A model generated the notes under the pieces. That model saw only the letters and a program-made list of their open reading frames with translations, was not told the DNA's origin and did not search any database. From Bacteroidota bacterium (GTDB lineage Bacteria; Bacteroidota; Rhodothermia; Rhodothermales; Rubricoccaceae): a DNA stretch of 57,751 nucleotides. Within the stretch, counting starts at the first letter, position 1. Every line of letters starts with the position of its first letter. The position numbers and the translations under genes are program-made. Shown here piece by piece: positions 7,613 to 55,077 of this stretch. The DNA lies in assembly GCA_022561755.1 (NCBI GenBank), contig JADFQN010000002.1, forward strand, positions 1 to 57,751. The letters are read 5' to 3'.

Positions 7613-8047
7613 ATGAACAAACAGCTCCTGCGAATAGCGGCCGTGGATTACGGCGCCAAGCGAGTAGGTCTGGCGATGACCGATCCGCTGCGAATGTTCG
7701 CGCGGCCCATTGGCGCCTTCTCACCCGACGGCGCGTTGACGCGCCTCGTAGAACTGCACGCTACGGAAGGCATCGAAACCATCGTAGTCGGCTGGCCGCT
7801 GATGGAGAGCGGGGAAGAGGGCAAGGCCACACGACGGGTTGAGCCCTACTTCGGGCGCTTGAAGAATACGCTACGCGACGTCAGTGTTGTCCGGCAAGAT
7901 GAACGCCATACCTCGCGCCGAGCCGCCGAGGCTCTTGTCGCCGCCGGCGTGAGGAAAAAGGCGCGCCGCAAGAAAGGCCGCCTCGACGCCGTCGCTGCCG
8001 TGCTTATTCTCCAAGACTATCTCGATGAAATGAAAAGTGAGAAGTGA
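7613..8047 (+). CDS. ruvX: Putative pre-16S rRNA nuclease/Holliday junction resolvase YqgF
   Basis: AAVDYGAKRVGLAMTDPLRMFARPIG; ORF extends to 7577 but ATG at 7613 fits. Confidence 0.9.
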   Translation: MNKQLLRIAAVDYGAKRVGLAMTDPLRMFARPIGAFSPDGALTRLVELHATEGIETIVVGWPLMESGEEGKATRRVEPYFGRLKNTLRDVSVVRQDERHTSRRAAEALVAAGVRKKARRKKGRLDAVAAVLILQDYLDEMKSEK

Positions 8048-8105
8048 AAAGGTGTGATGTGGTCACCCTCCTTCGCCCTTTTCACTTCTCCCTTTACCCT
8101 TTTTC
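8031..8105. repeat. Word-repeat inverted element E1
   Basis: TGAAAAGTGAGAAGTGAAAAGG ... CCCTTTTCACTTCTCCCTTTACCCTTTTTC fills the ruvX-def gap and encodes the end of ruvX (MKSEK*). Confidence 0.75.
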
Positions 8106-8708
8106 ATGATTCTGCCCATTTACACGTACGGCCAGCCAATTCTTCGGGAGACGACCATCCCCGTGGAGGAGGATTCGCCGGAGCTGCAGCGCCTCATAGA
8201 CGACATGATTGAGACGGTGCGCCATGCTACGGGCGTGGGGCTCGCAGCGCCGCAGGTCGGGAGAACGGAGCGGCTGTTCGTGGTGGACCTCACCGGCGCG
8301 GCCGAGGAAATGGCCGAGGCTAATGAAGGAGCGGTCCCGTTCTACGCGCAGGAGCCGATCGCTCTCATCAACCCGGAAATCCTTGAAGCCGACGAGGGCA
8401 CGGCGATGGAGTTTGAGGAAGGCTGCCTGTCGGTTCCGGGCATCACGGAATGGGTTACGCGGCCGGATCGCGTGCGGATTCGCTTTTTGGACAGACAGTT
8501 CACCGAACACGAATTGGAAGCCGACGACATCCTCGCGCGCGTCTTTCAGCACGAACTGGACCACCTCAACGGCGTGCTTTTTCTGGACCATCTCTCCCCC
8601 CTCAAGAAGCGCATGCTGAAACGCCGGCTCACCGAGATGGCGAAGGGATTTATAGAGGTCGAGTACCCGGTTGCGCCACCCGGCGCGATGGCGTCGGCGC
8701 AAGGGTGA
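8106..8708 (+). CDS. def: Peptide deformylase
   Basis: GVGLAAPQVG, EGCLSVPG, HELDHLNGVLFLDHL. Confidence 0.96.
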   Translation: MILPIYTYGQPILRETTIPVEEDSPELQRLIDDMIETVRHATGVGLAAPQVGRTERLFVVDLTGAAEEMAEANEGAVPFYAQEPIALINPEILEADEGTAMEFEEGCLSVPGITEWVTRPDRVRIRFLDRQFTEHELEADDILARVFQHELDHLNGVLFLDHLSPLKKRMLKRRLTEMAKGFIEVEYPVAPPGAMASAQG

Positions 8709-8770
8709 ACCGGAAATATCACCGCTCGTACCATCGCCGCACTTAAGCGCGTCCTTAACCAGAGTCGTCG

Positions 8771-9580
8771 ATGTCCGCCGGGGTACTCGCCATTGGGAGT
8801 GTGCTGCTCGTGAGCCTTGTGTCGCTCGCGGGAGCCTTCACGCTATCGCTCGGCCGAGCGCGGCTGGAGCGTGTGATGTTCCTGCTCGTCTCGTTCGCTG
8901 TTGGCGCCATGCTGAGCGGGGCGCTGCTCCATCTCATCCCGAGGGCCTACGAGCAGTTGGAGGACGGCGCGTTGATCGGCGCCCTCGTTCTTGCAGGTGT
9001 ATTTGGGTTTTTTGTATTAGAGAAATTCCTTCACTGGCGGCACCACCACGGTACGCCCGAGGCGGCAGACGGCGGGAACGGGCACCATCGCGGCCATCAC
9101 CAGCAAGAGGTGGCTCCGTTTGCGACCATGAACCTCATCGGTGATGCCGTCCACAACTTGATTGACGGAATGATTGTCGCGGCGGCGTACCTGGTGTCGA
9201 TTCCCGCCGGTATCGTGACCACACTAGCCGTGATGCTCCACGAGATTCCGCAGGAGATCGGCGACTTCGGCGTACTCGTTTACGGTGGGTACAGCCCGAA
9301 GAAGGCGCTTCTGTTCAACTTCCTGTCGGGCCTCGTTGGTGTGGTAGGCGCGGTGATCGCACTCCTCATCGGCGCGCGCGTGGAGGGCTTCGCGGACTAC
9401 CTCCTGCCCATCACGGCCGGCGCGTTCATCTACATTGCGGGCAGCGACCTCATCCCGGAACTGAACCAGCGCCACAGCGACTCGGCCTCTCAGTCCGCCC
9501 TGCAACTGGTGATGATGGTGCTCGGCGCGAGCGTGATGTTGCTGCCGGGATTGCTGGAGAGTTTTTTGGCGACCGGGTAG
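8771..9580 (+). CDS. ZIP family metal transporter
   Basis: His-rich loop HHHGTPEAADGGNGHHRGHHQQE; HNLIDGMIVAAAY; HEIPQEIGDFGVL. Confidence 0.9.
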   Translation: MSAGVLAIGSVLLVSLVSLAGAFTLSLGRARLERVMFLLVSFAVGAMLSGALLHLIPRAYEQLEDGALIGALVLAGVFGFFVLEKFLHWRHHHGTPEAADGGNGHHRGHHQQEVAPFATMNLIGDAVHNLIDGMIVAAAYLVSIPAGIVTTLAVMLHEIPQEIGDFGVLVYGGYSPKKALLFNFLSGLVGVVGAVIALLIGARVEGFADYLLPITAGAFIYIAGSDLIPELNQRHSDSASQSALQLVMMVLGASVMLLPGLLESFLATG

Positions 9581-9585
9581 CAGTG

Positions 9586-9644
9586 TTTGTCCAATAGGGA
9601 TGCCTTGTCCATTATATTTGGACAGACCTGATTAATTGGACAAA
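9586..9644. repeat. Inverted repeat between convergent genes (TTTGTCCAAT...ATTGGACAAA)
   Basis: Perfect 10-bp arms 9586-9595/9635-9644 with an inner TTGTCC...GGACA pair. Confidence 0.6.
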
Positions 9645-9651
9645 TGGAGCG

Positions 9652-10641
9652 TCAGACTTCAGAAGCGCTGCTCAAGGCCGCCGCAATCCGATCAGCGGTA
9701 TCACGAAAGGAACGGAAGGAGCAGCCGAGCTCCTCAACAGCCCTGTGGTTGCTGTAGCGGTACGTTTCCGAGGCCGCCCGCACGGTTTCTCGTGTGATGA
9801 GCGGCTTGACTCGAATCAGCCGAGCCAACGTTTCTGAGACCGTTGCCATCACCATTGCAGGACCTCGGTTAAGTCTGAGCCGAGGGAGCTTGGCACCGAA
9901 AGCCTCTGCCAGCGTACCAAAGATGTTGGCCCAGGAGAGGTTTTCGCCGCCGAGAATGTAGCGCTCCCCCGTGGCCCCGCGCTCCATCGCGGCGCGGATG
10001 CCGGCAGCGACGTCTTCCACATCTACAACGCACGTGCCGCCGGATGGAATGCCCGGTACGCGTCCATCCCGCACCTTTTCGACAATAGCCATTGAGTTCT
10101 CACCAGGCCGGCCGGGGCCGAAAATGAGGCTCGGATTGACGAGCACGGCGTCGAGACCCTCCGCGATGGCGCGGTGGACTTCCATCTCGGCCAGATGCTT
10201 GCTGACGGCATACGCCGAGTTTTCCTTCGACGCGGTCCACTCGGCCGTCTCGTCGATGGGTTCGTGGTGGCCGCGCGTCCGCCCCAAGGCCGCGATGCTG
10301 GATACGTGTACCATCTGCATAACGCCTGCCTCGCGCGCCGCGTCCGCCACGTTGGCCGTGCCGCGCACGTTGACATCCATCAGCCGCGCTTCGTCTTTCT
10401 TCCCCCCAAACCCGACGTAGGCCGCTGCGTGGTACACGTGCTGGACGCCTTCCATGGCTGCAAGAACCGACGGATAGTCCGTGACATCGCCGATGACGTG
10501 CTCGAGGCGATTGGCGGTATCGTTCAGCAAATCCAGCTTCGAGTGCTCCCGCCGCAGGATGCGCACGGCATGGCCTCCCGCCACGAGTTGCCGCGTAAGC
10601 GTTGCGCCGAGGAAGCCGGTTGCGCCCGTCACAAGAATCAT
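9652..10641 (-). CDS. NAD-dependent epimerase/dehydratase (extended SDR)
   Basis: MILVTGATGFLGATLTRQL; YAVSKHLAE. Confidence 0.9.
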   Translation of the reverse strand: MILVTGATGFLGATLTRQLVAGGHAVRILRREHSKLDLLNDTANRLEHVIGDVTDYPSVLAAMEGVQHVYHAAAYVGFGGKKDEARLMDVNVRGTANVADAAREAGVMQMVHVSSIAALGRTRGHHEPIDETAEWTASKENSAYAVSKHLAEMEVHRAIAEGLDAVLVNPSLIFGPGRPGENSMAIVEKVRDGRVPGIPSGGTCVVDVEDVAAGIRAAMERGATGERYILGGENLSWANIFGTLAEAFGAKLPRLRLNRGPAMVMATVSETLARLIRVKPLITRETVRAASETYRYSNHRAVEELGCSFRSFRDTADRIAAALSSASEV

Positions 10642-10642
10642 T

Positions 10643-10838
10643 TTTTGAATTCGCAGATTGAAAGGTTACAGGTTAGTTACTAGGGTTACAGGTTAGAAGA
10701 TTAGAGGTTTCAGATTCTTTAGGGCGGCGCATAGTCGCCAGACTAATGTTCCGGTGGTTCCAGCCTTCGAACGCGACAACCTGCAATCTTCCAACCTTCA
10801 ATCTGAAAATCTTCAACCTTCTAACCTGTAATCGTCAA
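10643..10838. repeat. Word-repeat inverted element E2 (AACCTTC/AACCTGTAA family)
   Basis: GATTGAAAGGTTACAGGTTAG... versus AACCTGCAATCTTCCAACCTTCAATCTGAAAATCTTCAACCTTCTAACCTGTAATC. Confidence 0.8.
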
Positions 10839-11326
10839 ACCAACTCGATTAACAACGCATTCTTCCCGACGGCGTCGCCGGGCGCCACGTGTACGGCCGC
10901 CACCCTTCCGGAAAGTGGCGCGCGGAGCTCGTTTTCCATCTTCATGGCCTCCAGAACGACGAGCCCCTGGCCTTCTTCTACGGACTGCCCAGGCTTCACG
11001 AGAACCTGCAATACGAGGCCAGGCATCGGGGCGTGGACCTCACGCCCGGCGGCCGAATCCTCGCCTTCGAAGCCGAACTGCTCCATCAGCAGCGCCATCT
11101 CGTCCTTCACGACAGCATCCTGTCTGATTCCTCCCGTCGTAACCTGAATGTGCTCGCCCTCTTGCTCGAACGTGATCACATGAACCTGTCCGTCCAGAAT
11201 CAGGAGGCCGCAGTTCGGGCCGAGGCGTTCGAAACGGGCGTCAAGCAGTTCGCCATCAAGAACGAAGTCGTTCCCCTCTCTATCGAGATCGAACGAGCGA
11301 TCACCGAGGCGTACTTGAAGATGCAT
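10835..11326 (-). CDS. Biotin/lipoyl-attachment domain protein (biotin carboxyl carrier-like)
   Basis: VLEAMKMENELRAPLSGRVAAVHVAPGDAVGKNALLIEL. Confidence 0.9.
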   Translation of the reverse strand: MHLQVRLGDRSFDLDREGNDFVLDGELLDARFERLGPNCGLLILDGQVHVITFEQEGEHIQVTTGGIRQDAVVKDEMALLMEQFGFEGEDSAAGREVHAPMPGLVLQVLVKPGQSVEEGQGLVVLEAMKMENELRAPLSGRVAAVHVAPGDAVGKNALLIELV

Positions 11327-11347
11327 CGTAGGGTAGGAATGAGCAAA

Positions 11348-11530
11348 GAGGCTGTTGAACTACGTCATCCTTCCTGCGACGGCACCTCTCGGCCGATCTC
11401 TTCGTTGCGAGATGCTCGCTGAATCACCGATTCAACTACGATCTCGCGCCCTAATCTCAACCGAGATGCGCTCCCCGACAAGTCGGGGCAGGCTGTCTCG
11501 GCGAAAGAGCACGTAATTCAACAGCCTCCT
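11348..11530 (+). mobile_element. TIR element family R, copy 1 (MITE-like)
   Basis: GAGGCTGTTGAACTACGT ... ACGTAATTCAACAGCCTC terminal inverted repeats (17/18). Confidence 0.7.
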
Positions 11531-11600
11531 AAGAAGATAGCGTTCTCCCTTGCGACTCTTGACCAGAATCGGCATTTTGAACACGTACTCGAAGCCAATT

Positions 11601-12215
11601 ATGCATCCGCCGCTCACCACCGAACTGCTGCTCTCCGCGTATTGCAGCGGCCTCTTCCCGATGGCCGACCCGGATGACGACGGCCGGATTTCATGGTACG
11701 CTCCCGATCCTAGGGCGATTCTGCCGCTTGACGGACTGCACATCTCAAAGTCGCTTGCTCGCACCGTTCGACAGGGGAAGTTTGAGGTCAGCGTGGATCG
11801 GGCGTTTGAGAACGTGATGCGGATGTGCGCCGAGTCAGCGCCGGGCCGCGAGACCACGTGGATTTCCGAAGAGCTGATCGGGGCCTACTCCGAATTGCAC
11901 GAGAGGGACTATGCGCACAGCGTGGAGTGCCGGCGAGACGGGGAGTTGGCCGGCGGCCTCTACGGGGTAGCAATCGGCGGGGCATTTTTCGCCGAGTCCA
12001 TGTTCAGCCGCTCCCGCGACGCCTCCAAGGTCGCGTTGGCGCATCTGGTGGAGCGGTTGCAAGCCGGCCGCTTTGTTTTGTTGGATGTGCAAATGAACAC
12101 GCCGCATCTGGCGCGGCTTGGTGCGGTGGTCATCTCGCGTTCGGCGTACGGAATTCGCCTTGCGCGGGCACTAACAGTCTCGGCGGACTGGAACGCCATC
12201 GATACCGTCGGTTGA
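11601..12215 (+). CDS. aat: Leucyl/phenylalanyl-tRNA--protein transferase
   Basis: LLSAYCSGLFPMAD...ISWYAPDPRAILPLDGLHISKSL; GGAFFAESMFSRSRDASKVAL. Confidence 0.95.
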   Translation: MHPPLTTELLLSAYCSGLFPMADPDDDGRISWYAPDPRAILPLDGLHISKSLARTVRQGKFEVSVDRAFENVMRMCAESAPGRETTWISEELIGAYSELHERDYAHSVECRRDGELAGGLYGVAIGGAFFAESMFSRSRDASKVALAHLVERLQAGRFVLLDVQMNTPHLARLGAVVISRSAYGIRLARALTVSADWNAIDTVG

Positions 12216-12296
12216 CGACTTCGTAATCCGGCGGCCTATCGCGGGGGCTATTTTAGTGTGTCGCACGTTAGAGGATCGTCTCCCTTTCAAATTGCC

Positions 12297-13202
12297 ATGT
12301 TTCGCCATCTCCTCCCTGTTTTCGTACTTCTCCTCGTTGCGTGTACCGATGCGCCCGCGTCCGATTCCGAGCAGGGTCCGCCCATGGTGGCCGTCTCGGA
12401 TACCACGACCGCCGACGCGGAGACGATGGCTGCCTTCGAGCGCGTGATGACCACAGCGCGCACCGAAGCCTTCTCTGAGCGCCCGTTCGGGGCGATCGTC
12501 CAATCGGTCGGGGAGGTGCTAATCGGTGCGCGGTATCAGGACGGGTTGCTGGATGTCAGCGCCGAAGAAACGCTGGTGGTCGATCTGACGGCGTTTGACT
12601 GCGTACTCTACGTCGAGAACGTGCTGGCGCTGGCGCGCGGCATCGCACAAGAGAACTACTCGTTCGCCGGCTACGTTGCCAACCTCGAAGACCTGCGCTA
12701 CCGGAACGGCACACTGGACGGCTATTGCTCGCGTCTCCATTACTTCACCGACTGGATGTACGACAACGCCTCGCGCGAGCACGTGACTAACATTACAAGG
12801 GACATCGGCGGAGAGGCCCTGCCCAAGACGCTCGATTTCATGACGACCCACCGCGGCGCCTACGCGCGCCTCGTCAGCGACTCCACCTTTGCTTGCATTT
12901 TGGGGATGGAGGAGCATATCCTGGGCCGCGAATTGTTCTACGTGCCGCAGGACCGTATTGAGGCCGTTTACGACCAGTTCGAGGCAGGCGACGTGATCGC
13001 CACGGCCACGCACATCGGCGGGCTAGACGTAACGCACACGGGCTTTGTCCATCGCACGGAAGGTGGCGGCATCGGTTTTCTGCACGCCTCCAGCACCGGC
13101 GAGGTGAAGGTGGCGGATGATCTGGCGGCCTACATTCGCAGCAACGATGTGCAGATCGGGATCATCGTCGCACGGCCCGTCGATCCGAGGAGTGAGCAGT
13201 AG
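12297..13202 (+). CDS. DUF1460 lipoprotein (N-acetylmuramoyl-L-alanine amidase-like)
   Basis: Lipobox LLLVAC; LTAFDCVLYVENVLALA; DGYCSRLHYFTDWMYDN. Confidence 0.85.
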   Translation: MFRHLLPVFVLLLVACTDAPASDSEQGPPMVAVSDTTTADAETMAAFERVMTTARTEAFSERPFGAIVQSVGEVLIGARYQDGLLDVSAEETLVVDLTAFDCVLYVENVLALARGIAQENYSFAGYVANLEDLRYRNGTLDGYCSRLHYFTDWMYDNASREHVTNITRDIGGEALPKTLDFMTTHRGAYARLVSDSTFACILGMEEHILGRELFYVPQDRIEAVYDQFEAGDVIATATHIGGLDVTHTGFVHRTEGGGIGFLHASSTGEVKVADDLAAYIRSNDVQIGIIVARPVDPRSEQ

Positions 13203-13310
13203 CTGCATAACAAGTAACCGCGTGAGGGGTGCAGTCCATACGCCCTCACAGCCTGCCCCGTACTTGATGCGGGGTAACCACGTCCTCACGTAATCACGCC
13301 GCTCTCACCC

Positions 13311-14294
13311 ATGCCCCCCATCACCCGCATCGGCGTGTACACCTCCGGCGGCGACGCGCCAGGTATGAACGCGTGCATCCGCGCCGTGACGCGACGGGCT
13401 CTGGTGGCCGGGAAAGAGGTCGTGGGCATCTTGCGGGGCTACGCCGGGATGATTGAAGGCGAGTTTGTTGACATGGATCGGCAGTTCGTATCCAACATCC
13501 TCCAGAGGGGCGGAACCATACTCAAGAGTGGACGCAGCACGGAGTTTCGGACGACCGCCGGCCGCGTTCGTGCCGCCGAAAATCTCCGCAAGGCCAAAAT
13601 CGACGCGGTGGTTGCCATCGGTGGAGATGGGACGCTGCAGGCCGCCACGATGCTCGCCGACGAGCACGGCATCGCCATAGTCGGCTGCCCCGGCACCATC
13701 GACAATGATCTGTACGGGACGGACGAGACCATCGGGTTCGACACCGCTATCAACACGGCGCTGGAGAGCATCGACAAAATCCGCGACACCGCAGATGCTC
13801 ACGAACGGCTGTTTCTGATTGAGGTGATGGGCCGCGCTACGGGGTTTATTGCGCTGGCGTGCGGAATCGGCGCGGGAGCGGAACTCATCGTGGTCCCCGA
13901 TCAACTCGACGACATCGAAGGCATCAAAGATCATCTCGCGGAATTGATGTCGCAGCAGCACCGCAGCAGCATCGTGGTGGTCGCAGAAGGGCCGGGCCTG
14001 AACGGAGCGCAGACCATCGCCCAGGCGCTTCCGGCCGACGAGCGGTTTCAAAACCTCGACCTTCGAGTGACCGTGCTCGGCCACGTTCAACGCGGCGGAT
14101 CGCCCACAGCCCGCGACCGCGTTCTGGCGACCAGGCTCGGTGTAGCCGCCGTCGAAACGCTTCTCGAAGGCAAGGCCAACATCATGGTGGGCCTGGTGGA
14201 CGGCAAGATCGAACACATACCCATCGCCGAGGTCTGGAGCCGCCGCAAAGACATCGACCAGAGCGCGCTGGAGCTGGCGCGGGTGGTGAGCTAG
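13311..14294 (+). CDS. pfkA: ATP-dependent 6-phosphofructokinase
   Basis: GVYTSGGDAPGMNACIRAV; AIGGDGTLQAA; GCPGTIDNDLYGTDETIGFDTA; GHVQRGGSPTARDR. Confidence 0.96.
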   Translation: MPPITRIGVYTSGGDAPGMNACIRAVTRRALVAGKEVVGILRGYAGMIEGEFVDMDRQFVSNILQRGGTILKSGRSTEFRTTAGRVRAAENLRKAKIDAVVAIGGDGTLQAATMLADEHGIAIVGCPGTIDNDLYGTDETIGFDTAINTALESIDKIRDTADAHERLFLIEVMGRATGFIALACGIGAGAELIVVPDQLDDIEGIKDHLAELMSQQHRSSIVVVAEGPGLNGAQTIAQALPADERFQNLDLRVTVLGHVQRGGSPTARDRVLATRLGVAAVETLLEGKANIMVGLVDGKIEHIPIAEVWSRRKDIDQSALELARVVS

Positions 14295-14728
14295 TCTCCG
14301 TTTGCAGTTCCATCCCGCCGTTTCGTCAGCCGCACTTCGCTCGTATGGCCGCTTGCCTTGAAACGCACGTCATCGACCAGTTTGTGAATGAGGTGCAGGC
14401 CGTAGCCATGCTTGCGTCGTTGGCTGCGGATGTCAGTCAGAGCTGCCAACTGGTGCTGTTTGGGATCGAAAGGTTTTCCGTGGTGGCGCACGGTCACGAC
14501 CAGGACGTCGGCTTTCAGCTTCGCCTCCACGTCTACGGTACCGTTCGGTTTGCCGCCGTAGCCGTGCTCAATAGCGTTGGCGCAGGCTTCATCGACAGCG
14601 CATTGAAGGGCACTTGCCTCTTCACTAGAGAGCCCCGCCTCCGCAGCCCACGATGCGACGGCTCGCCGCACGCGGGCGAGTTGGCTCGTCCGGCTTGGGA
14701 TGGACAGTTTATGGGGACAGCGGGCCAT
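14291..14728 (-). CDS. Anti-sigma factor-type ATP-binding (HATPase_c) protein, RsbW-like
   Basis: ALQCAVDEACANAIEHGYGG; KHGYGLHLIHKLVDDV. Confidence 0.88.
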   Translation of the reverse strand: MARCPHKLSIPSRTSQLARVRRAVASWAAEAGLSSEEASALQCAVDEACANAIEHGYGGKPNGTVDVEAKLKADVLVVTVRHHGKPFDPKQHQLAALTDIRSQRRKHGYGLHLIHKLVDDVRFKASGHTSEVRLTKRRDGTANGD

Positions 14729-15117: not shown

Positions 15118-15118
15118 A

Positions 15119-15279: not shown

Positions 15280-15314
15280 ATAGACTCGGTCGAACGGAAA
15301 GCTGTAAAGAAGAC

Positions 15315-19696: not shown

Positions 19697-19775
19697 CTTG
19701 TAATCTGAAACCTTCGAACCTGTAACCTTTTAACCTGTAACCTTCGAACCCTAAAACCTGAAACCCAAGTACCAG
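19697..19775. repeat. Word-repeat element E3 (AACCTTCGAACCTGTAA family, one clear arm)
   Basis: TAATCTGAAACCTTCGAACCTGTAACCTTTTAACCTGTAACCTTCGAACCCTAAAACCTGAAACCC. Confidence 0.7.
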
Positions 19776-20693
19776 TTGGCCACAGAACAGAACCACGCCC
19801 GCCGCATCGCCGCCATCGACGTGGGGACCAACACCGTGATGTGCTTGGTGGCGGATGTTCTTCCGGACGGAAGCCTCGAAGTGTTGACCGACGAAGAGCG
19901 CTTCGCACGGCTTGGAGAAGGGGTGGATGAAACCGGACGGCTCTCGGAAGCTTCCATGGATCGCGTTGTCGCTCGCCTCGCAGAATGCAAAACCACCGCC
20001 GAACGGTTCGACGCTGAGACCATCGTTATCGGCGCGACGAGCGCTTCTCGAGATGCAACCAACACTGAAGAACTCATCAGGCGCGTGAATGACGAGCTTG
20101 GTCTCGATTACCGCGTGCTGTCCGGCGAAGAGGAAGCGGAACTGAGCTTCCGGGGTGCATTGGCATTGGTTCCTGGGACCTCTGAGGCCCGCGTGCTCGA
20201 TGTCGGCGGCGGATCGACTGAGATCGTCGTTGGCGAAGACGGCGCGATTCGATTCCGAACCAGCATGGACGTGGGCAGCGTGCGCCTCACGGAGCAGTTT
20301 TTCTTGTCAACGCCGCCTTCAGCCGTACAAATACGAAGGGCGGAAAGGGCCTTGGATGCTGTTCTGGGGATGATTTCACGCGATTCCCTCGCCGGACTGC
20401 CGCTTATCGAAGGAGGAGGAACGGCTCGTGTCTTGGCCTCCCTGATTGGAGCCGGCGAGCCTGCTCCGACCATTCCACGTCGCGTGGTCCGCGAGTGGCG
20501 CGACCGGCTGCTGACGATGTCACCCGACAAGGTTCGCGCGCTCAACCCGGACATGCTCGGCGGCCGCGAAGACATCGCCGGCGCAACGCTCCTCATTCTC
20601 GACGCCGTCATGCAGCGCTTCGGCTTCGAGGCCTTCATAGCCGGGCAGGGCGGGCTGAGGCACGGGCTAGCGCTGCTGAATGGTGAGCGCTGA
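19776..20693 (+). CDS. Ppx/GppA family phosphatase
   Basis: AAIDVGTNTVMCLVAD; VLDVGGGSTEIVVGE; DVGSVRLTEQFF. Confidence 0.92.
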   Translation: MATEQNHARRIAAIDVGTNTVMCLVADVLPDGSLEVLTDEERFARLGEGVDETGRLSEASMDRVVARLAECKTTAERFDAETIVIGATSASRDATNTEELIRRVNDELGLDYRVLSGEEEAELSFRGALALVPGTSEARVLDVGGGSTEIVVGEDGAIRFRTSMDVGSVRLTEQFFLSTPPSAVQIRRAERALDAVLGMISRDSLAGLPLIEGGGTARVLASLIGAGEPAPTIPRRVVREWRDRLLTMSPDKVRALNPDMLGGREDIAGATLLILDAVMQRFGFEAFIAGQGGLRHGLALLNGER

Positions 20694-20815
20694 AGGATGA
20701 ATGCTGAAGTCGCCGCTCTTCGTTCTTTGTGCTTTGATCTCAGCAGTCTGCTACCAGTGGCCTTCTTCTTTCACCGTTCATCCTTTAGCATTCATCCTTT
20801 TTCTGGAACCACGTC
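20690..20815. repeat. Word-repeat inverted element E4 (TTCATCCTTTAGC family)
   Basis: GCTGAAGGATGAATGCTGAA ... TTCATCCTTTAGCATTCATCCTTT; supplies the ppx TGA. Confidence 0.7.
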
Positions 20816-21959: not shown

Positions 21960-22030
21960 TGCTGATTACGCGATTACGTGAACCCAGTATTGGGGTCGCC
22001 TCACGTAATCACGTGTTCACGTAATCATCC
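21958..22030. repeat. Word-repeat inverted element E5 (GATTACGTGAAC)
   Basis: GATTACGCGATTACGTGAACCC ... CACGTAATCACGTGTTCACGTAATC. Confidence 0.65.
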
Positions 22031-28708: not shown

Positions 28709-28782
28709 GGAGGTTTGTGCGTAGTGGGTATTGTGTAATACGTGTTTCTTGCTCACTACGCATTACGCAATACGCCGTCGTT
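28709..28782. repeat. Word-repeat inverted element E7 (TACGCAATACG family)
   Basis: TGCGTAGTGGGTATTGTGTAATACG ... CACTACGCATTACGCAATACG. Confidence 0.8.
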
Positions 28783-29756: not shown

Positions 29757-30042
29757 AGCTTTCGGATTTCGGATATGGGATATCGGATAGTGGATTTCGG
29801 ATTTCGGATATCGGATATCGGAATTTTAGATTTGGATCTTCGTATTTGGAGCTTGGAATTTGGAATTTCGGGTTTGGGATTAGCGTTGACCACTCACCAC
29901 CAACCACTGACTTCAGCGTTCATCCTTCCCCTTTCATCCTTCTCACGCCCCTTTTCCCATTACCCTTCGGACCCAGCCTTCCTCGTTCATCCTTCACTCT
30001 TTAACCTTCATCCTTCACCCTTCGGATTTCTAACTTCATACC
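29757..30042. repeat. Word-repeat element E8 (GGATATCGG arm plus TTCATCCTTC arm)
   Basis: GGATTTCGGATATGGGATATCGGATAGTGGATTTCGG... then GTTCATCCTTCCCCTTTCATCCTTC... Confidence 0.8.
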
Positions 30043-31621: not shown

Positions 31622-31634
<13 letters not shown>

Positions 31635-31815
31635 AAAGGGAAAAGGGTTAAGGGCGAAGGGTGCTCGACTCTGATATTCCCAAATCCCAAGCTCCCAATC
31701 GCAAGCTCCAAATTCCAAATTCCAAGGATTCGAACTCCAAACTCCAAAAATCCCAAATCCCAAATCCGAAATCCACTATCCGAAATCAGCAATCCCAAAT
31801 CGGTAATCCCATAAC
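31622..31815. repeat. Word-repeat element E9 (inverse of E10)
   Basis: GAAAGTGAAAAGGGAAAAGGG...GGGCGAAGGGTGCTCGACTCTGATATTCCC and CCAAATCCCAAATCCGAAATCC...; reverse complement shared with 38412-38466. Confidence 0.85.
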
Positions 31816-38261: not shown

Positions 38262-38466
38262 GGAGTCTATGGGATATCGGATATCGGATATCGGGTTTGG
38301 GATATCGGATTTTGGATTATTGATTTCGGGTATCGGATTTCGGATTTGGGGCTTGGGATGTGGGATTTTGTGCTTCGTACTTGGTGCTTGGAAATTGGTG
38401 CTTGGAAATTAGGAATATCAGAGTCGAGCACCCTTCGCCCTTTACCCTATTCCCTTTTCACTTTCC
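38262..38466. repeat. Word-repeat element E10
   Basis: GGATATCGGATATCGGATATCGGG... and CACCCTTCGCCCTTTACCCTATTCCCTTTTCACTTTC. Confidence 0.85.
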
Positions 38467-44807: not shown

Positions 44808-44885
44808 GGCTTTGTTCTTGGTTCTTAGTGCCTTGTTTTTCGTTACCCAGGCACTAAAAACTAAGAACGAAGAACTACCTCACCC
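44808..44885. repeat. Word-repeat inverted element E11 (GTTCTTAGTGCC family)
   Basis: TTGTTCTTGGTTCTTAGTGCC ... GGCACTAAAAACTAAGAACGAAGAAC, spans actA stop to actB start. Confidence 0.8.
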
Positions 44886-47978: not shown

Positions 47979-47980
47979 TT

Positions 47981-49462
47981 ATGGCGACGACTTCAACTTC
48001 TTACGACGAATCTTCGCTCGCGTACCCGGCGGGCGTTCCGAAGACGCTTGAGGATGCGCCGCTGGTAGGCGGCAACCTGTCTTTTCACGACGTAACCGAG
48101 CTCATTGCGGGGCACAACGAGAAGAAGACGCCCCTCTTCTGGTTTTTCGGCTTCTCCGTCGCCCTCTTTCTGCTGGGGATATTCGGCCTCTCCATCTCCT
48201 ACCTCGTGTGGAACGGCACGGGTACGTGGGGTGTGAACAACCCGGTTGGCTGGGGCTGGGCCATCGTCAACTTCGTGTGGTGGGTTGGTATCGGCCACGC
48301 GGGCACACTGATTTCGGCGATTCTCTTCCTCTTCAGGCAGCGTTGGCGAACGTCCATCAACCGCGCGGCGGAGGCGATGACGCTCTTCGCCGTGGCCTGT
48401 GCGCTCGTCTTCCCGACGTTTCATACCGGCCGGCCGTGGCTCGATTACTGGATGATGCCGGTCCCGAACCAGATGGCGTTGTGGCCGCAGTTCAAGAGCC
48501 CACTGATGTGGGATGTGTTCGCGGTTTCCATCTACGGCATGGTTTCGCTGCTCTTCTGGTACACCGGCCTCATCCCCGACCTGGCCACGCTGCGCGACCG
48601 CGCTACGGGCCTCCGCCAGAAGATCATCGGCATTATGGCGTTGGGCTGGACGGGTTCCAACCGGCACTGGAGGCACTACGACCGCGCCTACCTAATCCTT
48701 GCGGGCCTCGCTACGCCGCTGGTCCTCTCGGTACACTCGGTTGTGTCGTTCGACTTTGCGGTGTCCATCGTGCCCGGCTGGCATACCACCATATTCCCAC
48801 CGTACTTCGTTGCGGGCGCCATCTTCTCCGGCTTCGCGATGGTGATGACGCTGCTGCTCGTGGCGCGCAAGGCTTACAACCTGCAAAACCTCATCACGCT
48901 CGACCACCTCGAGAAGATGAACCTCATCATTTTGCTGACGGGCAGTATCGTCGGTTTCGCGTACATCACGGAGTTCTTCATGGCGTGGTACAGCGGCGTG
49001 GCCTACGAGCAATATGCCTTCCGCAACCGTGCCTTTGGCGACTATGCGTGGGCGTACTGGATTATGATGAGCTGCAACCTGCTCCTGCCGCAGCTTTACT
49101 GGGTGAAGAAGTTCCGCCGTAGCATCCCGTTGATGTTCACGATCGCCATCGTCGTGAACATCGGTATGTGGTTCGAGCGTTTCGTGATTGTGGTATCGAG
49201 CCTCCACCGCGACTACCTGCCGTCCAGCTGGGATTACTACTCGCCCACCATCTGGGACGCCGGGATCTACCTCGGCACCTTCGGCCTCTTCTTTACGCTG
49301 TTCTTCCTGTTCCTTCGCTTCTTCCCGATGGTCGCCATCGCCGAAATCAAGGGTGTGCTGCCGCAGGCGAATCCTCACTATTACGATCATGGGCAAGGCG
49401 ACGGGCATGCGGGAGAAGCGCCGAAAGCAGCCGTTTCCGCTAAAACCGATGAGGTGGGTTGA
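47981..49462 (+). CDS. actC: Alternative complex III NrfD-like membrane subunit ActC
   Basis: Polytopic; [69 protein letters not shown]. Confidence 0.94.
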
Positions 49463-50073
49463 TGTTTAGCGCAATCAAGAACAGGCTGGCCGACCATGCC
49501 AACCAGCACGTGGGTTTGCTGGCGGAGTTCTCCGACCCTGGATCGCTGATGCAAGCCGTCAAGGCGCTTCGCAAGCGAGGCTACTCGCGGCTGGACACCT
49601 TCTCGCCGTTCGCAATCCACGGGATGGACAAGGCGATTGGCCTCGGCACGAGCCTCCTCGGCTACATCGTTTTTATCGGCGGACTTGCCGGCTGCGCGCT
49701 GGGCGTCTGGCTTCAGTGGTGGACGAGCGCGGTAAGCTACCCCATCAACATTGCGAACAAGCCGCTTTTCTCCGTGGAGCCGAGCATGCCCATCATCTTC
49801 GAGTTGATGATTCTATTCTCTGCGCTGACGGCCGTGGGAGCGATGCTCGCCCTGAACGCGCTTCCCAAACCCTACAACCCGCTCTTCTTCTCGAAGCGGT
49901 TCGCACGCGCCACGGATGATGGCTTTTTCCTCCACATTCAGGAGACCGACGACCTGTTCGACCGTGCAGCCACGGCGCAAGCGCTTTCCGAAGAAGGCGC
50001 ACTGGCTATCGAGTACGTCAGCCACGAAGGCGCTGAAGACGTGACCGCACCCGATTCCATAAACGAGACCTGA
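49462..50073 (+). CDS. actD: Alternative complex III DUF3341 subunit ActD
   Basis: GLLAEFSDPGSLMQAVKALRKRGYSRLDTFSPFAIHGMDKAIG. Confidence 0.93.
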   Translation: MFSAIKNRLADHANQHVGLLAEFSDPGSLMQAVKALRKRGYSRLDTFSPFAIHGMDKAIGLGTSLLGYIVFIGGLAGCALGVWLQWWTSAVSYPINIANKPLFSVEPSMPIIFELMILFSALTAVGAMLALNALPKPYNPLFFSKRFARATDDGFFLHIQETDDLFDRAATAQALSEEGALAIEYVSHEGAEDVTAPDSINET

Positions 50074-50144
50074 GTATTAGTGCGTAATGCGTAGTGCGTA
50101 ATTGGCTCTTCCTTACGCAATACGAAATACGAAGTACGATTTCC
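50074..50144. repeat. Word-repeat inverted element E12
   Basis: AGTGCGTAATGCGTAGTGCGTAATTGG ... CCTTACGCAATACGAAATACGAAGTACG. Confidence 0.85.
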
Positions 50145-50810
50145 ATGACCCGCTTCTTCCACATCTCGCTTGTTGCCGCTATCGCGCTTCCGCTGGTCCT
50201 TTCCGGTTGCCGCGGGATGAAATCCGAGCGCACGCCGATCCATCCGAACCCCAACATGGATCATCAGGAGCGGTTTGAAGAACAAGAAGCCAATCCATTT
50301 TTCGCCGACGGCTCTTCCATGCGGATGCCCGTGCCCGGCACGGTGGCTCGCGGCCACCTCCGCACCACCGCCAACGCGCCGTTCGAGTTGGGCCGGGAAG
50401 CCTCCGGCCAGTTCGTAGCAGCGAACCCGATGGATGTGAATGCAATGCTGCTGGAGCGTGGGAGGGAGCGCTTCAACATTTACTGTACGCCGTGCCACGG
50501 CTATGCGGGCGATGGTCGTGGGATTATCATGGTCGGCAACGGCGGGCAGGGCTACGGCTTCGTTCCGGCGCCGACGTACCACTCTGACTTCCTCCGCAAT
50601 GTGCCGGACGGCTACCTCTACGGCGTGATGGCCAACGGTGTCCGCTCCATGCCGAGCTACGGGCACGAGATTGCCCCGGCCGACCGCTGGGCCATCGTTG
50701 CATACATCCGTGCGCTCCAGCGCTCGCAGGACGCGGGGCCGGAAGACGTGCCGGAGCCCGAGCGCGACCGCCTGGCGACCTACAACCCAAACGTGAACGT
50801 GACCAATTGA
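50145..50810 (+). CDS. actE: Alternative complex III mono-haem cytochrome c subunit ActE
   Basis: Lipobox LVLSGC; YCTPCHGYAGDGRG; NGVRSMPSYGHEI. Confidence 0.92.
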   Translation: MTRFFHISLVAAIALPLVLSGCRGMKSERTPIHPNPNMDHQERFEEQEANPFFADGSSMRMPVPGTVARGHLRTTANAPFELGREASGQFVAANPMDVNAMLLERGRERFNIYCTPCHGYAGDGRGIIMVGNGGQGYGFVPAPTYHSDFLRNVPDGYLYGVMANGVRSMPSYGHEIAPADRWAIVAYIRALQRSQDAGPEDVPEPERDRLATYNPNVNVTN

Positions 50811-50878
50811 TCGTATTTCGTATTGCGTAAGGGATAGCCCAAGTACGCACTACGAAATACGAACTACTCAAACCCCCG
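50811..50878. repeat. Word-repeat inverted element E13
   Basis: TCGTATTTCGTATTGCGTAAGGG ... AAGTACGCACTACGAAATACGAACTAC. Confidence 0.85.
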
Positions 50879-52240
50879 ATGGCGAATCCTCTAACTCGTC
50901 TCTTCCTTGACCCCCTCGACTCGGATCGCGAGCGGGCCCCGCGGAAGTACCAGCTTTCGGGCGATTTCCGCTGGTGGGTGGTTCCGCTGGGCATCGGCGT
51001 CGCGTGCTTAGCCCTGTCGTTGCTCGGCCTCGCCGGCGACTCGCAGCGCTTCTGGTACGCCTACCTCGTCGGCTGGATGTTCTGCGTGTCCATTTCCGTC
51101 GGCGCGCTGTTCTTCGTGATGATTCAGCACATCGTGAAGGCGTACTGGAGCGCGTCTCTGCGCCGCATCCCCGAGCTCCTCGTTGCCAACTTTCCGCTGC
51201 TCTTCCTGCTGGGCCTCCCGATTCTCCTTTTCGGGATGCAGGATCTCTACCACTGGACGCACGCCGATCTTTACGAGGTCGGCGGCGAGCACTTCGATCC
51301 GATTCTCGCGGGAAAACAGAGTTATCTGAACGTTCCGTTCTTCATCGCGCGCGTCGTCCTGTACTTTGCGCTGTGGTCGTACCTGGGCCTGCGCATGTAC
51401 ACGCTTTCCGTCCGGCAGGACACCGAGCCGACGGTTGAGAACACGCTGAAGCTGCGCAAGGTGAGCGCGTGGGGCATCCCGCTGTGCGCCGTGGGCACGT
51501 CTTTCGCGTCGTTCGACCTCCTGATGAGCCTCGACCCGCACTGGTTCTCCACCATCTTCGGCGTCTACTTCTTCGCGGGCAGTTGGCTGGCCTCGTGCGC
51601 TGTGCTCGCGCTCATCGGCCTGGCGCTCCGCCTCAGCGGCTTGCTGAAGATGGAGATCACGACCGAGCATTATCAGGACGTCGGCAAGTTCATGTTCGGC
51701 TTCGTCGTGTTCTGGACGTACATCGCCTTCTGCCAGTACATGCTGATCTGGTACGCCAACCTCCCCGAGGAAATCCAGTGGTACGCCGACCGCCTCTCCA
51801 ACGGCTGGGAGACGTTCACCTGGGCGCTGATCATCGGCCATTTCCTCGTCCCGTTCTTTCTGCTTTTGCCGCGCATCACCAAGCGGGTGCTTCCGTTTTT
51901 CGCATTCATGTGCGTCTGGGTGCTGGTGATGCACTGGATCGACCTGTTCTGGCTTGCCTTGCCCACGATTGCCGGCGAAGCCGCGCACACCGCCGCTGCT
52001 CAGGCCGCTGCCCAAGCCGCCGAGGCTGGGCATGCAGTCGCTGCCGGCCTGGATAACGTGGTGGGTCTCGCCGATGTATCCAGCTCGCAGCCGGCCGGTT
52101 TCAGGATGGTGGACTTCACGGCGTGGTTCGGGATGTTCGGTATTTTCCTCGGCGCCACGTTTTGGCGCGCAGGACGGCATAGCCTTACGCCCTACAACGA
52201 TCCCTACTTCGCCGACTCGCTGCGCTTCGAAAATGAGTAA
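50879..52240 (+). CDS. actF: Alternative complex III membrane subunit ActF
   Basis: Position after actE; polytopic; FFVMIQHIVKAYWSASLRRIPELL; FASFDLLMSLDPHWFSTIFGVYFFAGS. Confidence 0.92.
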   Translation: MANPLTRLFLDPLDSDRERAPRKYQLSGDFRWWVVPLGIGVACLALSLLGLAGDSQRFWYAYLVGWMFCVSISVGALFFVMIQHIVKAYWSASLRRIPELLVANFPLLFLLGLPILLFGMQDLYHWTHADLYEVGGEHFDPILAGKQSYLNVPFFIARVVLYFALWSYLGLRMYTLSVRQDTEPTVENTLKLRKVSAWGIPLCAVGTSFASFDLLMSLDPHWFSTIFGVYFFAGSWLASCAVLALIGLALRLSGLLKMEITTEHYQDVGKFMFGFVVFWTYIAFCQYMLIWYANLPEEIQWYADRLSNGWETFTWALIIGHFLVPFFLLLPRITKRVLPFFAFMCVWVLVMHWIDLFWLALPTIAGEAAHTAAAQAAAQAAEAGHAVAAGLDNVVGLADVSSSQPAGFRMVDFTAWFGMFGIFLGATFWRAGRHSLTPYNDPYFADSLRFENE

Positions 52241-52313
52241 TAACTAATACGTATTCCGTATTCCGTATAGACCACTCGAACCCAGTGAATACGCATTTCG
52301 CCTTTCGCAATAG
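52241..52313. repeat. Word-repeat inverted element E14
   Basis: AATACGTATTCCGTATTCCGTATAG ... GAATACGCATTTCGCCTTTCGCAATAG. Confidence 0.7.
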
Positions 52314-52383
52314 ACCCTCGATTCACCGCACTTTTGCAGTAGCATTGAAAACAGCGGCTCTGCCCGCGCGTTAGACCGCTCAG

Positions 52384-52983
52384 ATGGAAGAACACACGCC
52401 CGATACTCCACAGACGCCCGATTCTGAGACATCCGCGGAAGGGGGTCACGAAGCGGATCGCCACGATGTCCGCGAGTTGGGCATCGGAGTAGAGGAGGAG
52501 GGCGTCATTGTGTCCGACCTCTTTGGAGTCATGCTGGCGTCGGTCATGTCCATTGCCTGCAGCGCCTTCGTACTGTATTTCGTGTTTTTCGTAACGCGCC
52601 GCGAACATGCGCGCGACGTTGCGGCAGACGTTCCGGCCGCTCGCTATGTGGAACAGCGCGAACTCCGCGCCGAGGCTCAAGACGCCTATGCCCACTACGC
52701 GCTCAGTCCAGACGCCGAGGGCCGTTATCGCATTCCCATCGACGCTGCTATGAAGATCGTGGAGCGGGGCGCCACGGGCGGTATCGCCGCTCCGGCCTCG
52801 CGAACCGCATACAACCTTGCGTGGTTGAACCTCCACCCGGCCCCTGCCATTCATGGCGCCGGTTCGGTCGGGATGCGCGAAGAAACAGCCCCTGTCTTAT
52901 TGGATTCAACAATCGTGGCGGACGCGGAAGTAGCGCCCGAGCCAGCCGAAGAACCCGTAGAAATGGAGGAGGAAACACAATAA
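52384..52983 (+). CDS. Single-TM hypothetical protein in the respiratory operon
   Basis: SVMSIACSAFVLYFVFFVTRREHARDVAAD; between actF and sco. Confidence 0.75.
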   Translation: MEEHTPDTPQTPDSETSAEGGHEADRHDVRELGIGVEEEGVIVSDLFGVMLASVMSIACSAFVLYFVFFVTRREHARDVAADVPAARYVEQRELRAEAQDAYAHYALSPDAEGRYRIPIDAAMKIVERGATGGIAAPASRTAYNLAWLNLHPAPAIHGAGSVGMREETAPVLLDSTIVADAEVAPEPAEEPVEMEEETQ

Positions 52984-52984
52984 C

Positions 52985-53875
52985 GTGGTCCACCGTGCCC
53001 TGACGATAGGCCTCTTCGTCGCTGTCGCCGTGCCGGCGATGGGCGGTAGGGGCATGGCCCAGCCGCTCGCAACCCAATCGCTCGAAGCGCAGCCCATCGA
53101 ACCCGACGCCGGTGTACCGGAGGTGACGGTGATTGAGCACCTCGGCGAGCAGATTTCGCTCGACACCGAGTTCGTGGATAGCAAAGGGGAGACGGTGAGG
53201 ATGGGCGATTACCTCGGGCGTGGCCACCCGGTGATCCTGAACTTTGCGTACCACTCCTGCCCGATGTTGTGCAGCCTCGTCCTGGACGGGCTCTCGGAAG
53301 CGCTCAGGGAAACGGACCTGGAGCCGGGCCTGGATTTTGAAGTCGTCTCCCTGTCCTTTAATCACCGTGAAGGCCCCGAGCGTGCTGCCGAGGCAAAGGC
53401 GATGTACGTGGAGCGGACGACTTCCGCGAAGCCGGACATCGCCGAGAGCTGGCATTTCCTGACCGGGCAGGAGGAGAACATTCGCACGCTCGCGGACGAA
53501 GTGGGCTTCGGTTTCGTGTGGGACGAGGCCACCCAGCAGTACGCTCACAACGCGATTCTCGTCTTCCTCAGCGCGGATGGTACCATCACGCGCTACCTCT
53601 ACGGCATCCAGCACAACCCACGCGACTTTCGCCTCGCCACCGTGGAGGCCGGGGAGGGCGCCGTCGGCTCCACGCTCGACCGGTTTCTGCTCACGTGCTT
53701 CCGCTACGACACCACCACGCGGTCGTACACCCCCTACATTCTCAACATCATGAAAATCGGCGGCGGCCTGTCGTTGCTGGCGCTCGCCGCTTTTTTCTTC
53801 CCGAAGTGGCTGCGCGAACGCAAGCGAGGCAACGAACCCGCTGGACTCGGTCTCGACCCCGGATTAGCTGATTAA
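52985..53875 (+). CDS. SCO1/SenC family copper chaperone with C-terminal TM
   Basis: HPVILNFAYHSCPMLCSLVLDGL (CXXXC); C-terminal GGGLSLLALAAFFFPKW. Confidence 0.92.
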   Translation: MVHRALTIGLFVAVAVPAMGGRGMAQPLATQSLEAQPIEPDAGVPEVTVIEHLGEQISLDTEFVDSKGETVRMGDYLGRGHPVILNFAYHSCPMLCSLVLDGLSEALRETDLEPGLDFEVVSLSFNHREGPERAAEAKAMYVERTTSAKPDIAESWHFLTGQEENIRTLADEVGFGFVWDEATQQYAHNAILVFLSADGTITRYLYGIQHNPRDFRLATVEAGEGAVGSTLDRFLLTCFRYDTTTRSYTPYILNIMKIGGGLSLLALAAFFFPKWLRERKRGNEPAGLGLDPGLAD

Positions 53876-53886
53876 CGACGTCTGCA

Positions 53887-54987
53887 ATGTTTCTAATATC
53901 GGTGTTTTTGGCTATGCAGGACGCGGCCGCCCCGGAAGGGCGCACCGAGTTCTGGACGGACGGCGGTTCGCTGTGGCTTCCGCCCCAGAGCTCGACGACG
54001 GCGCACATTATTGACAACGCGTTCTACTTCATTCTCTACGCGAGTACGATCCTCACCATCGGCGTAACCATTGCCATGGTCGTACTCGCGTGGAAGTACA
54101 GACGGAAGTCGCACGCCGAGCACCCGCGCCCTGTCCACGAGAGCAAGCTGCTTGAGATGTCGTGGACCATCATTCCCACTATCCTCACGATGATCGTGTT
54201 CTTCTGGGGCTTCCGTTCTTACATGGACACGAGCATCGCACCCAGCGATGCTTACGAGATCCGTGTAGTAGCGCAGAAGTGGTTCTGGACGTTCGAGTAT
54301 CCAAACGGCATGGTGGTGCAGAACGAGGTGGTGGTGCCTGCCGGGCAGCCCGTCAAGCTTGTAATGAGCGCCAGAGATGTGCTTCACAGCTTCTTCGTGC
54401 CTGCGTTCCGCATCAAGCACGACGTGATCCCAAACCGCTATACGTACGTTTGGTTTAACGCGCCGGAAGAGGGCGTCTACCAGGTGGTTTGCACGGAATA
54501 CTGCGGCACGGGCCATTCAAACATGGGCGCGAAGATCCGTGTAGTGGGCCGCGATGCATTCTACGAGTATCTCGCAACGGGTGGGGCCGGAGGGGAAGAC
54601 CTTCCGCCTGCCGAGTGGGGCGAGCGGCTTTACAGCAGCCGGAATTGCAACACGTGCCACACCATTGACGGTTCGGCGGGGACGGGTCCAACCTGGCTCG
54701 GTACTTGGGGCCAGACGCGTGCGTTCGCCGATGGATCCAGCGCCGTGATGGACGACAGCTACGTCCTCGAGTCACTCTACAACCCCGGCACCCAAATCGT
54801 GCAGGGCTTCCAGCCCCAGATGCCCTCCTACGAGAGCCTCATGTCCGACCGTGATGTGCGTGCCATCGCCGCCTACATGCGCCTGATCAACGGAGTTGCG
54901 ACAGCCGCCGACACCAGCTTGGCTTTGCCCGAAGCCGCGGTCGATTCAACGGAAATTGAAACAACTCCGGCAGGCCCGGACGAATAA
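53887..54987 (+). CDS. coxB: Cytochrome c oxidase subunit II with fused cytochrome c domain (caa3-type)
   Basis: WTIIPTILTMIVFFWGF; CuA motif CTEYCGTGHSNM; haem motif CNTCH. Confidence 0.95.
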   Translation: MFLISVFLAMQDAAAPEGRTEFWTDGGSLWLPPQSSTTAHIIDNAFYFILYASTILTIGVTIAMVVLAWKYRRKSHAEHPRPVHESKLLEMSWTIIPTILTMIVFFWGFRSYMDTSIAPSDAYEIRVVAQKWFWTFEYPNGMVVQNEVVVPAGQPVKLVMSARDVLHSFFVPAFRIKHDVIPNRYTYVWFNAPEEGVYQVVCTEYCGTGHSNMGAKIRVVGRDAFYEYLATGGAGGEDLPPAEWGERLYSSRNCNTCHTIDGSAGTGPTWLGTWGQTRAFADGSSAVMDDSYVLESLYNPGTQIVQGFQPQMPSYESLMSDRDVRAIAAYMRLINGVATAADTSLALPEAAVDSTEIETTPAGPDE

Positions 54988-55077
54988 GTATTAATTCGTA
55001 ATTCGTATTGCGTAAGGTTCCGATTTTGACCCTTTATGCAATACTGAATACGCAATACGGAACACGCACTATTCCCT
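54988..55077. repeat. Word-repeat inverted element E15
   Basis: AATTCGTAATTCGTATTGCGTAAGG ... CCTTTATGCAATACTGAATACGCAATACGGAACACG. Confidence 0.85.

What the first reader, a model, noticed from the sequence alone, without database searches (positions are those of the whole stretch)
8031..55077. Family of intergenic word-repeat hairpins that fill whole gene-gene gaps
At least 15 gaps (8031, 10643, 19697, 20690, 21958, 23109, 28709, 29757, 31622, 38262, 44808, 50074, 50811, 52241, 54988) contain short degenerate words repeated several times on one arm, with their reverse complement repeated on the other arm. The words differ between elements (ATACGnAATACG; GGATATCGGATTTCGG; AACCTTCnAACCTGnAA; TTCATCCTTTAGC; GTTCTTAGTGCC; CCCTTTTCACTTT), but the architecture is the same, and many start at the stop codon and end at the next start codon. 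They are not exact copies, so ordinary repeat finders may miss them. Conserved architecture with varying words suggests an element whose arms are continually rewritten. This does not match IS elements, simple tandem repeats or classical REP/BIME sequences.
Basis: partly seen in the sequence, partly recalled or inferred. Interest (0 to 1): 0.88.

Follow-up and report, generated by a model that had tools for sequence, protein, structure and literature searches.

The report
Heptamer-built hairpin repeats between genes
The gaps between genes in this uncultured Rhodothermales bacterium are peppered with short repeats built from seven-base units, often arranged as mirror-image hairpins right behind a stop codon; such seven-base repeats are known elsewhere, but here the best-populated class turns out to be a discrete, oriented 69-base element with about 70 copies that a sister species almost entirely lacks.

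Summary
The 'words' are degenerate tandem heptamers: in 1.1 Mb of this genome, period-7 arrays number 84 between genes and 7 in genes; periods 4-6 and 9-11 give 0-1 between genes. Nine of the 15 listed gaps fold better than shuffles; six do not. The best-populated class (CGTANTN) is a discrete element of modal length 69 nt: xTANTG(CGTANTN)2CGTANTGG, about 14 nt of loop, CYTTACG(NANTACG)2NANTAG. There are about 70 copies per genome; 411 kb of the sister species held none and its whole genome holds 1-2. Arm order is fixed within each family (38 of 38), yet free positions do not covary between arms (160 pairs seen, 163 expected), so arms are not rewritten in concert. Elements sit behind stop codons more than chance allows and are oriented at random to transcription (7:7). 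Two orthologous sister gaps are clearly empty; others hold an unrelated hairpin. Distant relatives carry the element patchily or use another key (CGTGNTN). Closest known: the GGGANTN inverted heptamer repeats of Xanthomonas. I read it as a REP-like dispersed DNA element with heptad anatomy, a new variant of a known kind. What spreads it is unknown; Y1 transposases do not track it.

The parts
50077..50137 (+). CGTA-family hairpin element, F orientation, starting 3 nt after a stop codon; sister species has only 5 nt between the two genes
   Evidence: R1 match 62.1 bits, E 1e-10; orientation; empty site
50806..50867 (-). CGTA-family hairpin element, R orientation, at the stop codon of the gene ending at 50810
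   Evidence: R1 match 58.1 bits on +, 56.8 on -; RNA fold z -7.0; sister gap has an unrelated small hairpin
54991..55058 (-). CGTA-family hairpin element, R orientation, directly behind the stop codon of the gene ending at 54987, before COX1
   Evidence: R1 match 60.2 bits; orientation; fold z -4.0
52244..52299 (.). Degraded CGTA-family element, 3 nt behind the stop codon at 52240
   Evidence: fuzzy pattern with 2 mismatches; does not fold better than shuffles
28714..28773 (.). CGTA-family hairpin element between two minus-strand genes
   Evidence: R1 match 45.1 bits, E 8e-7
44810..44872 (.). GTTCTTN-family hairpin (GTTCTTGGTTCTTAGTGCC ... GGCACTAAAAACTAAGAAC)
   Evidence: arm score 16.5, fold z -6.7; sister has a shorter unrelated hairpin in the same gap
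8036..8093 (.). GTGAAAA/GTGAGAA-family hairpin overlapping the 3' end of the gene ending at 8047
   Evidence: arm score 14.5, fold z -7.8
10690..10831 (.). GGTTAGA/AACCTTC-family hairpin; gap 199 nt here, 15 nt in the sister
   Evidence: fold z -4.3
20693..20799 (.). GGATGAA/TGCTGAA-family hairpin, arms 17 nt, at the stop codon of the gene ending at 20693
   Evidence: fold z -5.1
21963..22019 (.). Period-8 hairpin (GATTACGC GATTACGT ... ACGTAATCACGT), minority class
   Evidence: fold z -3.9
29760..29822 (+). GGATNTN array, nine heptads, one-armed; followed by drifted heptads
   Evidence: period-7 score 34; fold not better than shuffles
31625..31774 (.). Mixed gap: GGGAAAA array then CCAAATC/AAATCCC array of another family
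   Evidence: fold not better than shuffles
38268..38391 (+). GGATNTN array drifting in phase to other heptads (GTGCTTG, GGAAATT)
   Evidence: period-7 score 34; fold not significant
19697..19775 (.). AACCTTC/AACCTGT array, one-armed
   Evidence: sequence, lag 7 top for the gap; fold not significant

Best explanation
The gaps hold several families of degenerate heptameric repeats. The best-populated one is a non-autonomous, REP-like dispersed DNA element of about 69 bp whose body is heptads CGTANTN: outer units xTANTG/NANTAG, two or three heptads per arm, an asymmetric inner pair CGTANTGG/CYTTACG and a loop of about 14 nt. Proposed working (inferred): a trans-acting factor, not identified, reads the fixed positions (1-4 and 6 of each heptad, in inverted order) as DNA and places or copies the element in intergenic DNA; the survivors are those behind stop codons, where an extra hairpin in the mRNA is tolerated or mildly useful. 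Slippage by whole heptads then changes unit number, and drift of free or key positions produces new dialects. Shown: heptad design, fixed arm polarity, modal length, orientation, copy number, empty sites in the sister, patchy spread. Inferred: the factor, the copying step, any benefit to the host.
For: Period 7 almost only between genes. Fixed polarity 38 of 38. Modal length 69 nt in 14 of 35 loci and an asymmetric inner pair giving each copy an orientation, random to transcription 7:7. About 70 copies genome-wide (134 strand matches), 35 loci in 1.1 Mb against 0 in 411 kb of the sister. Core words conserved in both arms without covariation of the free positions, so sequence rather than pairing is conserved. 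Sister gaps clearly empty at 10642 and 50074. Same element patchily in G019, G020, G027, G031, G052, G058. Stop-codon bias 54 against 39.
Against: No mobile machinery identified; Y1 transposases do not co-occur. Loops are not clearly homologous between copies, and no recent near-identical copies were seen. No target duplication was looked for systematically. Other families (GGATNTN, GGACGGA and so on) look like plain arrays rather than fixed-length elements, so slippage must matter there. Only 16 of 35 copies could be oriented. With one sister, gain here cannot be told from loss there.
Confidence: 0.55

Rival explanations
1. Slippage-born simple sequence repeats: heptamer arrays arise independently by polymerase slippage, favoured because 7 nt fits the polymerase footprint (hypothesis of Mrazek 2007 as quoted in PMC4679880 and PMC4692102), and persist between genes because 7 is not a multiple of 3.
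For: Many arrays are one-armed; words drift in phase along one array (L041 6152-6231, window 38268-38391); a few perfect long arrays (L071 6060, L018 8708).
Against: Fixed arm polarity 38 of 38, modal 69-nt length and orientation, the same two free columns at scores of loci, near-absence from the same-genus sister. Slippage does not predict inverted pairs of one polarity.
Confidence: 0.22
2. Functional mRNA stem-loops: intercistronic hairpins selected for mRNA stability or processing, with the heptads only a cheap way to build them.
For: Stop-codon placement; nine of 15 gaps fold well; the sister has different hairpins in some of the same operon gaps; several family members have small hairpins in gap 50074.
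Against: No covariation at the free positions; orientation random to transcription; six of 15 gaps do not fold better than shuffles; no excess of terminator-like sites.
Confidence: 0.15
3. Chromosome-wide protein-binding sites: a nucleoid or regulatory protein reads CGTA-N-T in inverted heptads, and copies are selected for that job.
For: Core conserved in both arms independently of pairing; dyad arrangement of fixed polarity.
Against: Almost absent from the same-genus sister; several unrelated word families coexist; bias to stop codons rather than start codons.
Confidence: 0.08

Closest known systems
Xanthomonas GGGAATC / (GGGANTN)n heptamer repeats (Rehm et al. 2015, PMC4692102)
   Same: Heptameric, positions 1-4 and 6 conserved and 5, 7 free, intergenic (about 90%), near the upstream ORF end (mean 28 nt), 70-75 convergent inverted pairs, about 185 sites per genome, copies and lengths differ between related species
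   Different: Here several word families coexist, the main key is CGTA rather than G-rich (no G-quadruplex case), and the main family resolves into a fixed-length oriented 69-nt element; that paper studied one word
Heptanucleotide stem of the Nostoc trnL intron P6b (PMC4476775)
   Same: Degenerate heptamers (TDNGATT, NNTGAGT) building a hairpin whose word class was replaced several times between lineages
   Different: One intron locus against a genome-wide family; the paired stem is stressed there, whereas no covariation was found here
TAACTGA direct repeats of Beggiatoaceae, cyanobacteria and Bacteroidetes (PMC4679880)
   Same: Intergenic heptamer repeats with a patchy distribution across phyla
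   Different: Direct repeats (one indirect), invariant word, mostly just upstream of start codons
REP/BIME elements and their RAYT transposases (from memory)
   Same: Dispersed palindromic intergenic repeats behind genes, many copies, species-specific
   Different: 69 nt with heptad anatomy instead of 20-40 nt REPs; Y1 transposase not found in G019, G031, G052 and G058, which carry 21-46 strand matches

Membership tests
Heptameric long simple sequence repeats / short tandemly repeated repetitive sequences | Tandem units of 7 nt over-represented against neighbouring unit lengths | tested here: met
   84 intergenic arrays at period 7 against 0-1 at 4, 5, 6, 9, 10, 11; 13 at period 8
Heptameric long simple sequence repeats / short tandemly repeated repetitive sequences | Intergenic location | tested here: met
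   84 against 7 coding overall; CGTA family 67 against 2
Xanthomonas-type (GGGANTN) inverted heptamer repeats | Conserved positions 1-4 and 6, free 5 and 7, in close inverted pairs | tested here: met
   CGTANTN and GGATNTN columns; 24 of 24 CGTA pairs in one polarity
Xanthomonas-type (GGGANTN) inverted heptamer repeats | G-rich word able to form G-quadruplexes | tested here: not met
   Main family CGTANTN has no G tract
REP/RAYT elements | Dispersed intergenic palindromes of fixed length | tested here: met
   35 loci in 1.1 Mb, modal length 69
REP/RAYT elements | Y1 (RAYT) transposase in genomes rich in the element | tested here: not met
   No PF01797 match in G019, G031, G052, G058; only two weak ones (23.0 and 21.1 bits) in G000
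REP/RAYT elements | GTAG-type tetranucleotide at the foot of the palindrome | tested here: inconclusive
   Ends are mostly GTA/CTA ... TAC/TAG, which may just be part of the heptad
MITE derived from an IS | Ends shared with an autonomous transposon, target duplication | not tested
   No autonomous partner sought systematically; no duplication evident by eye in the empty-site alignments

The most novel reading that the evidence does not exclude
A class of copied bacterial DNA elements whose recognition code is a heptad of the form key4-N-T-N read in inverted order, each genome using its own key (CGTA, CGTG, GGAT, CCAA, GTGC, GGGA), spread by an undescribed trans-acting machine that is not a Y1 transposase; this would explain much of the unexplained excess of heptamer repeats across bacteria.
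Probability: 0.2. Interest if true: 0.85.

Novelty: new variant of a known kind. Interest (0 to 1): 0.55.

Why it matters
Heptamer repeats have been noted as over-represented in bacteria since 2007, with polymerase slippage as the stock explanation. Fixed length, fixed arm polarity, an orientation, free positions that do not pair, and empty sites in a sister are not what slippage predicts. They recast at least one class as discrete dispersed elements, with a defined set of rich and empty relatives in which to look for the machinery.

Tried and rejected
Templated rewriting of one arm by the other, or selection on base pairing: rejected, no covariation at the free positions. RAYT/Y1 transposase as driver: no co-occurrence. 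Transcription terminators: no excess over shuffles in 42-57.7 kb. Known RNA families and tRNAs: none in the window. Copy-paste of whole elements including loops: loops barely more alike than shuffled. Plasmid carriage: only a weak CGTAATT-array match in a Chroococcidiopsis plasmid and none for the GGAT word. Orthologous gap statistics over the sister: only 29 syntenic pairs, 5 with arrays, not significant on their own. Apparent period-7 hits in the sister were runs of N. The CGTA hairpin is not wholly absent from the sister: 3 strand matches genome-wide.
Full report
What the window is. The window is contig C80 (57,751 bp) of a 3.06 Mb genome in 198 contigs. Its closest named relative in the collection is a Rubricoccaceae MAG (Ww533, 84% identity to one 1030-aa protein); Rubricoccaceae belongs to Rhodothermales, phylum Rhodothermota. 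From 44 to 57.7 kb it carries an operon-like run of genes with a 4Fe-4S protein and COX1 (naming it alternative complex III plus cytochrome oxidase is my inference).

The words are degenerate tandem heptamers. In 12 of the 15 listed gaps lag 7 is the strongest self-match; 10642 and 21960 peak at 8 and 23109 at neither. In 1.1 Mb of the same genome, 84 period-7 arrays lie between genes and 7 in genes; period 8 gives 13 and 1; periods 4, 5, 6, 9, 10 and 11 give 0-1 between genes. Hairpins with long arms are 100 in 262 kb of gaps against 0 in 262 kb of coding DNA and 2 in shuffled gaps; 40 of them have heptameric arms. Nine of 15 listed gaps fold better than dinucleotide shuffles, six do not. 129 of 686 gaps (19%) hold at least one array. 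Gene calls are from a simple home-made caller, so individual coding/intergenic labels may be wrong.

Families. Assigning arrays to seed words gives about ten families: CGTANTN (67 intergenic arrays), GGATNTN (38), TTTGGAA (36), GGACGGA (30, with 23 more in coding, so partly chance), GGGAAAA (26), GGGTGAA (21), GTTCTTN (20), GTCAGGR (15), GGTTGAA (10), and the GGATGAA/TGCTGAA group (16). In most, a core is fixed and about two columns are free. In CGTANTN and GGATNTN the free columns are 5 and 7, which is the published pattern of the Xanthomonas GGGANTN repeats (positions 1-4 and 6 conserved). Read from its left arm, the TTTGGAA family also approximates CCAANTN. Other families (GTTCTTN, GGGAAAA, GGACGGA) do not follow this rule.

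Polarity. When two arrays of one family lie within 120 nt on opposite strands, their order is always the same within the family: 24 of 24 for CGTA, 7 of 7 for TTTGGAA, 38 of 38 over all. A looser count that allows single heptads gave 26 against 3, the three each resting on a lone heptad as partner. Chance inversion or fold-back would give both orders.

The 69-nt element. Aligning 25 CGTA hairpins gave nTAnTG CGTAnTn CGTATTG CGTAnTGG - loop - CnTTACG CAnTACG AAATACG CAnTAn. A covariance model built on them finds 35 loci in 1.1 Mb and 134 strand matches, about 70 loci, in the whole genome. The modal length is exactly 69 nt (14 of 35). The inner pair CGTANTGG / CYTTACG is asymmetric, so 16 copies could be oriented; among those between co-directional genes, 7 run with transcription and 7 against it.

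No pairing signature. If the RNA hairpin were selected, or if one arm were copied from the other, free columns should pair. They do not: 76 Watson-Crick pairs against 74.4 expected, 160 against 163.4 in the larger set, covariation score 0.100 against 0.097 shuffled. The conserved part is the word in each arm, which points to recognition of sequence rather than of structure. This counts against 'arms continually rewritten'.

Placement. Arrays lie within 12 nt of the upstream stop codon in 54 of 100 co-directional cases (39 expected, maximum 50 in 2000 simulations), but near the start codon no more than expected (40 against 39).

Sister species. G001, same genus and about 83% identical in protein, has no period-7 arrays in 395 kb (the only hits are runs of N) and no model match in 411 kb, where about 13 would be expected at this genome's density. 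Its whole genome has 3 strand matches, that is 1-2 elements. Two sites are clearly empty in the sister: gap 10642 (199 against 15 nt) and gap 50074 (71 against 5 nt). Gap 31635 (202 against 21 nt) rests on a weak right anchor. Gaps 20694, 21960, 38257, 54988, 44808 and 50811 are shorter in the sister. In 44808 and 50811 (and 52241 by eye) the sister has its own unrelated small hairpin, so a hairpin at those places may be tolerated or useful. Gain here and loss there cannot be separated with one sister, though gap 50074 is short or absent in many order-level relatives.

Other genomes. The model finds 21-46 strand matches in G019, G020, G027, G031, G052 and G058 and none in most of the 60 relatives. 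G027, from another family, has 214 matches to CGTGNTN triplets against 3 for the reversed control; G019 has 39 matches to the reversed control, that is, to GTGCNTN. The same gap 50074 in family members G006 and G007 holds CGTGTTG- and CGTGGTG-like heptads. So the architecture recurs with different keys. A Chroococcidiopsis (cyanobacterial) plasmid carries CGTAATT arrays. Presence of Y1 transposases does not follow the element.

Known relatives. Published heptamer repeats include the Xanthomonas GGGANTN sites with 70-75 convergent inverted pairs (PMC4692102), the heptanucleotide stem of the Nostoc trnL intron (PMC4476775) and TAACTGA repeats (PMC4679880). The kind is therefore known. New here are the resolution of one class into a discrete oriented element, the fixed polarity, the tested absence of covariation, empty sites, and key changes between relatives.

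Mechanism. I favour a dispersed, non-autonomous DNA element read by an unidentified factor, with slippage by heptads as a secondary process; confidence 0.55. Shown: anatomy, polarity, length, orientation, placement, patchiness, empty sites. Inferred: the mover, the copying step, any benefit to the cell.

Noticed in passing
window 11348-11528; also L025 7139, L068 16743 and 19184, L081 2566, L028 4424, L034 6660, L036 4813, L059 16632, L080 4226, L074 6375: A second, non-heptameric dispersed inverted repeat (GAGGCTGTTGAAATACGT ... ACGTATTTCAACAGCCTC) occurs at a dozen or more places in 1.1 Mb.
   Followed up: no
L075 1-78 and 704-821, L031 18157-18227: A third dispersed palindrome, GTAGGGGCGAGATACATCTCGCCCCTAC, REP-like.
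   Followed up: no
L065 6421-6818: Tandem copies of a larger unit of roughly 120 nt (GGATTCGCCCGGA..AATAAGCGCCCAACCGTTCGA) bounded by the period-8 word GATTACGT.
   Followed up: no
window 21963-22019; L009 2394, L064 11807, L065 6788: A minority class has period 8 (TCACGTAA), not 7.
   Followed up: partly
A2 alignment, pair 27-125: The inner pair is anti-correlated (3 Watson-Crick against 11.9 expected): a copy has either CGTAAGG on the left or CCTTACG on the right, seldom both. This revealed that the near-palindromes have an orientation.
   Followed up: yes
G019:C1:768151-768220: In a distant relative a CGTA hairpin lies about 90 nt from the orthologue of the window gene 49462-50073 (G019:C1:767537-768061), in another gap of the same operon.
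   Followed up: no
window 29757-29900, 38268-38391; L041 6086-6231: Within one array the word drifts in phase from one family to another (TGGGATT, TACTTGG, AATTTGG, TGCTTCG, TCCTCCG), suggesting units copied from their neighbour with changes.
   Followed up: partly
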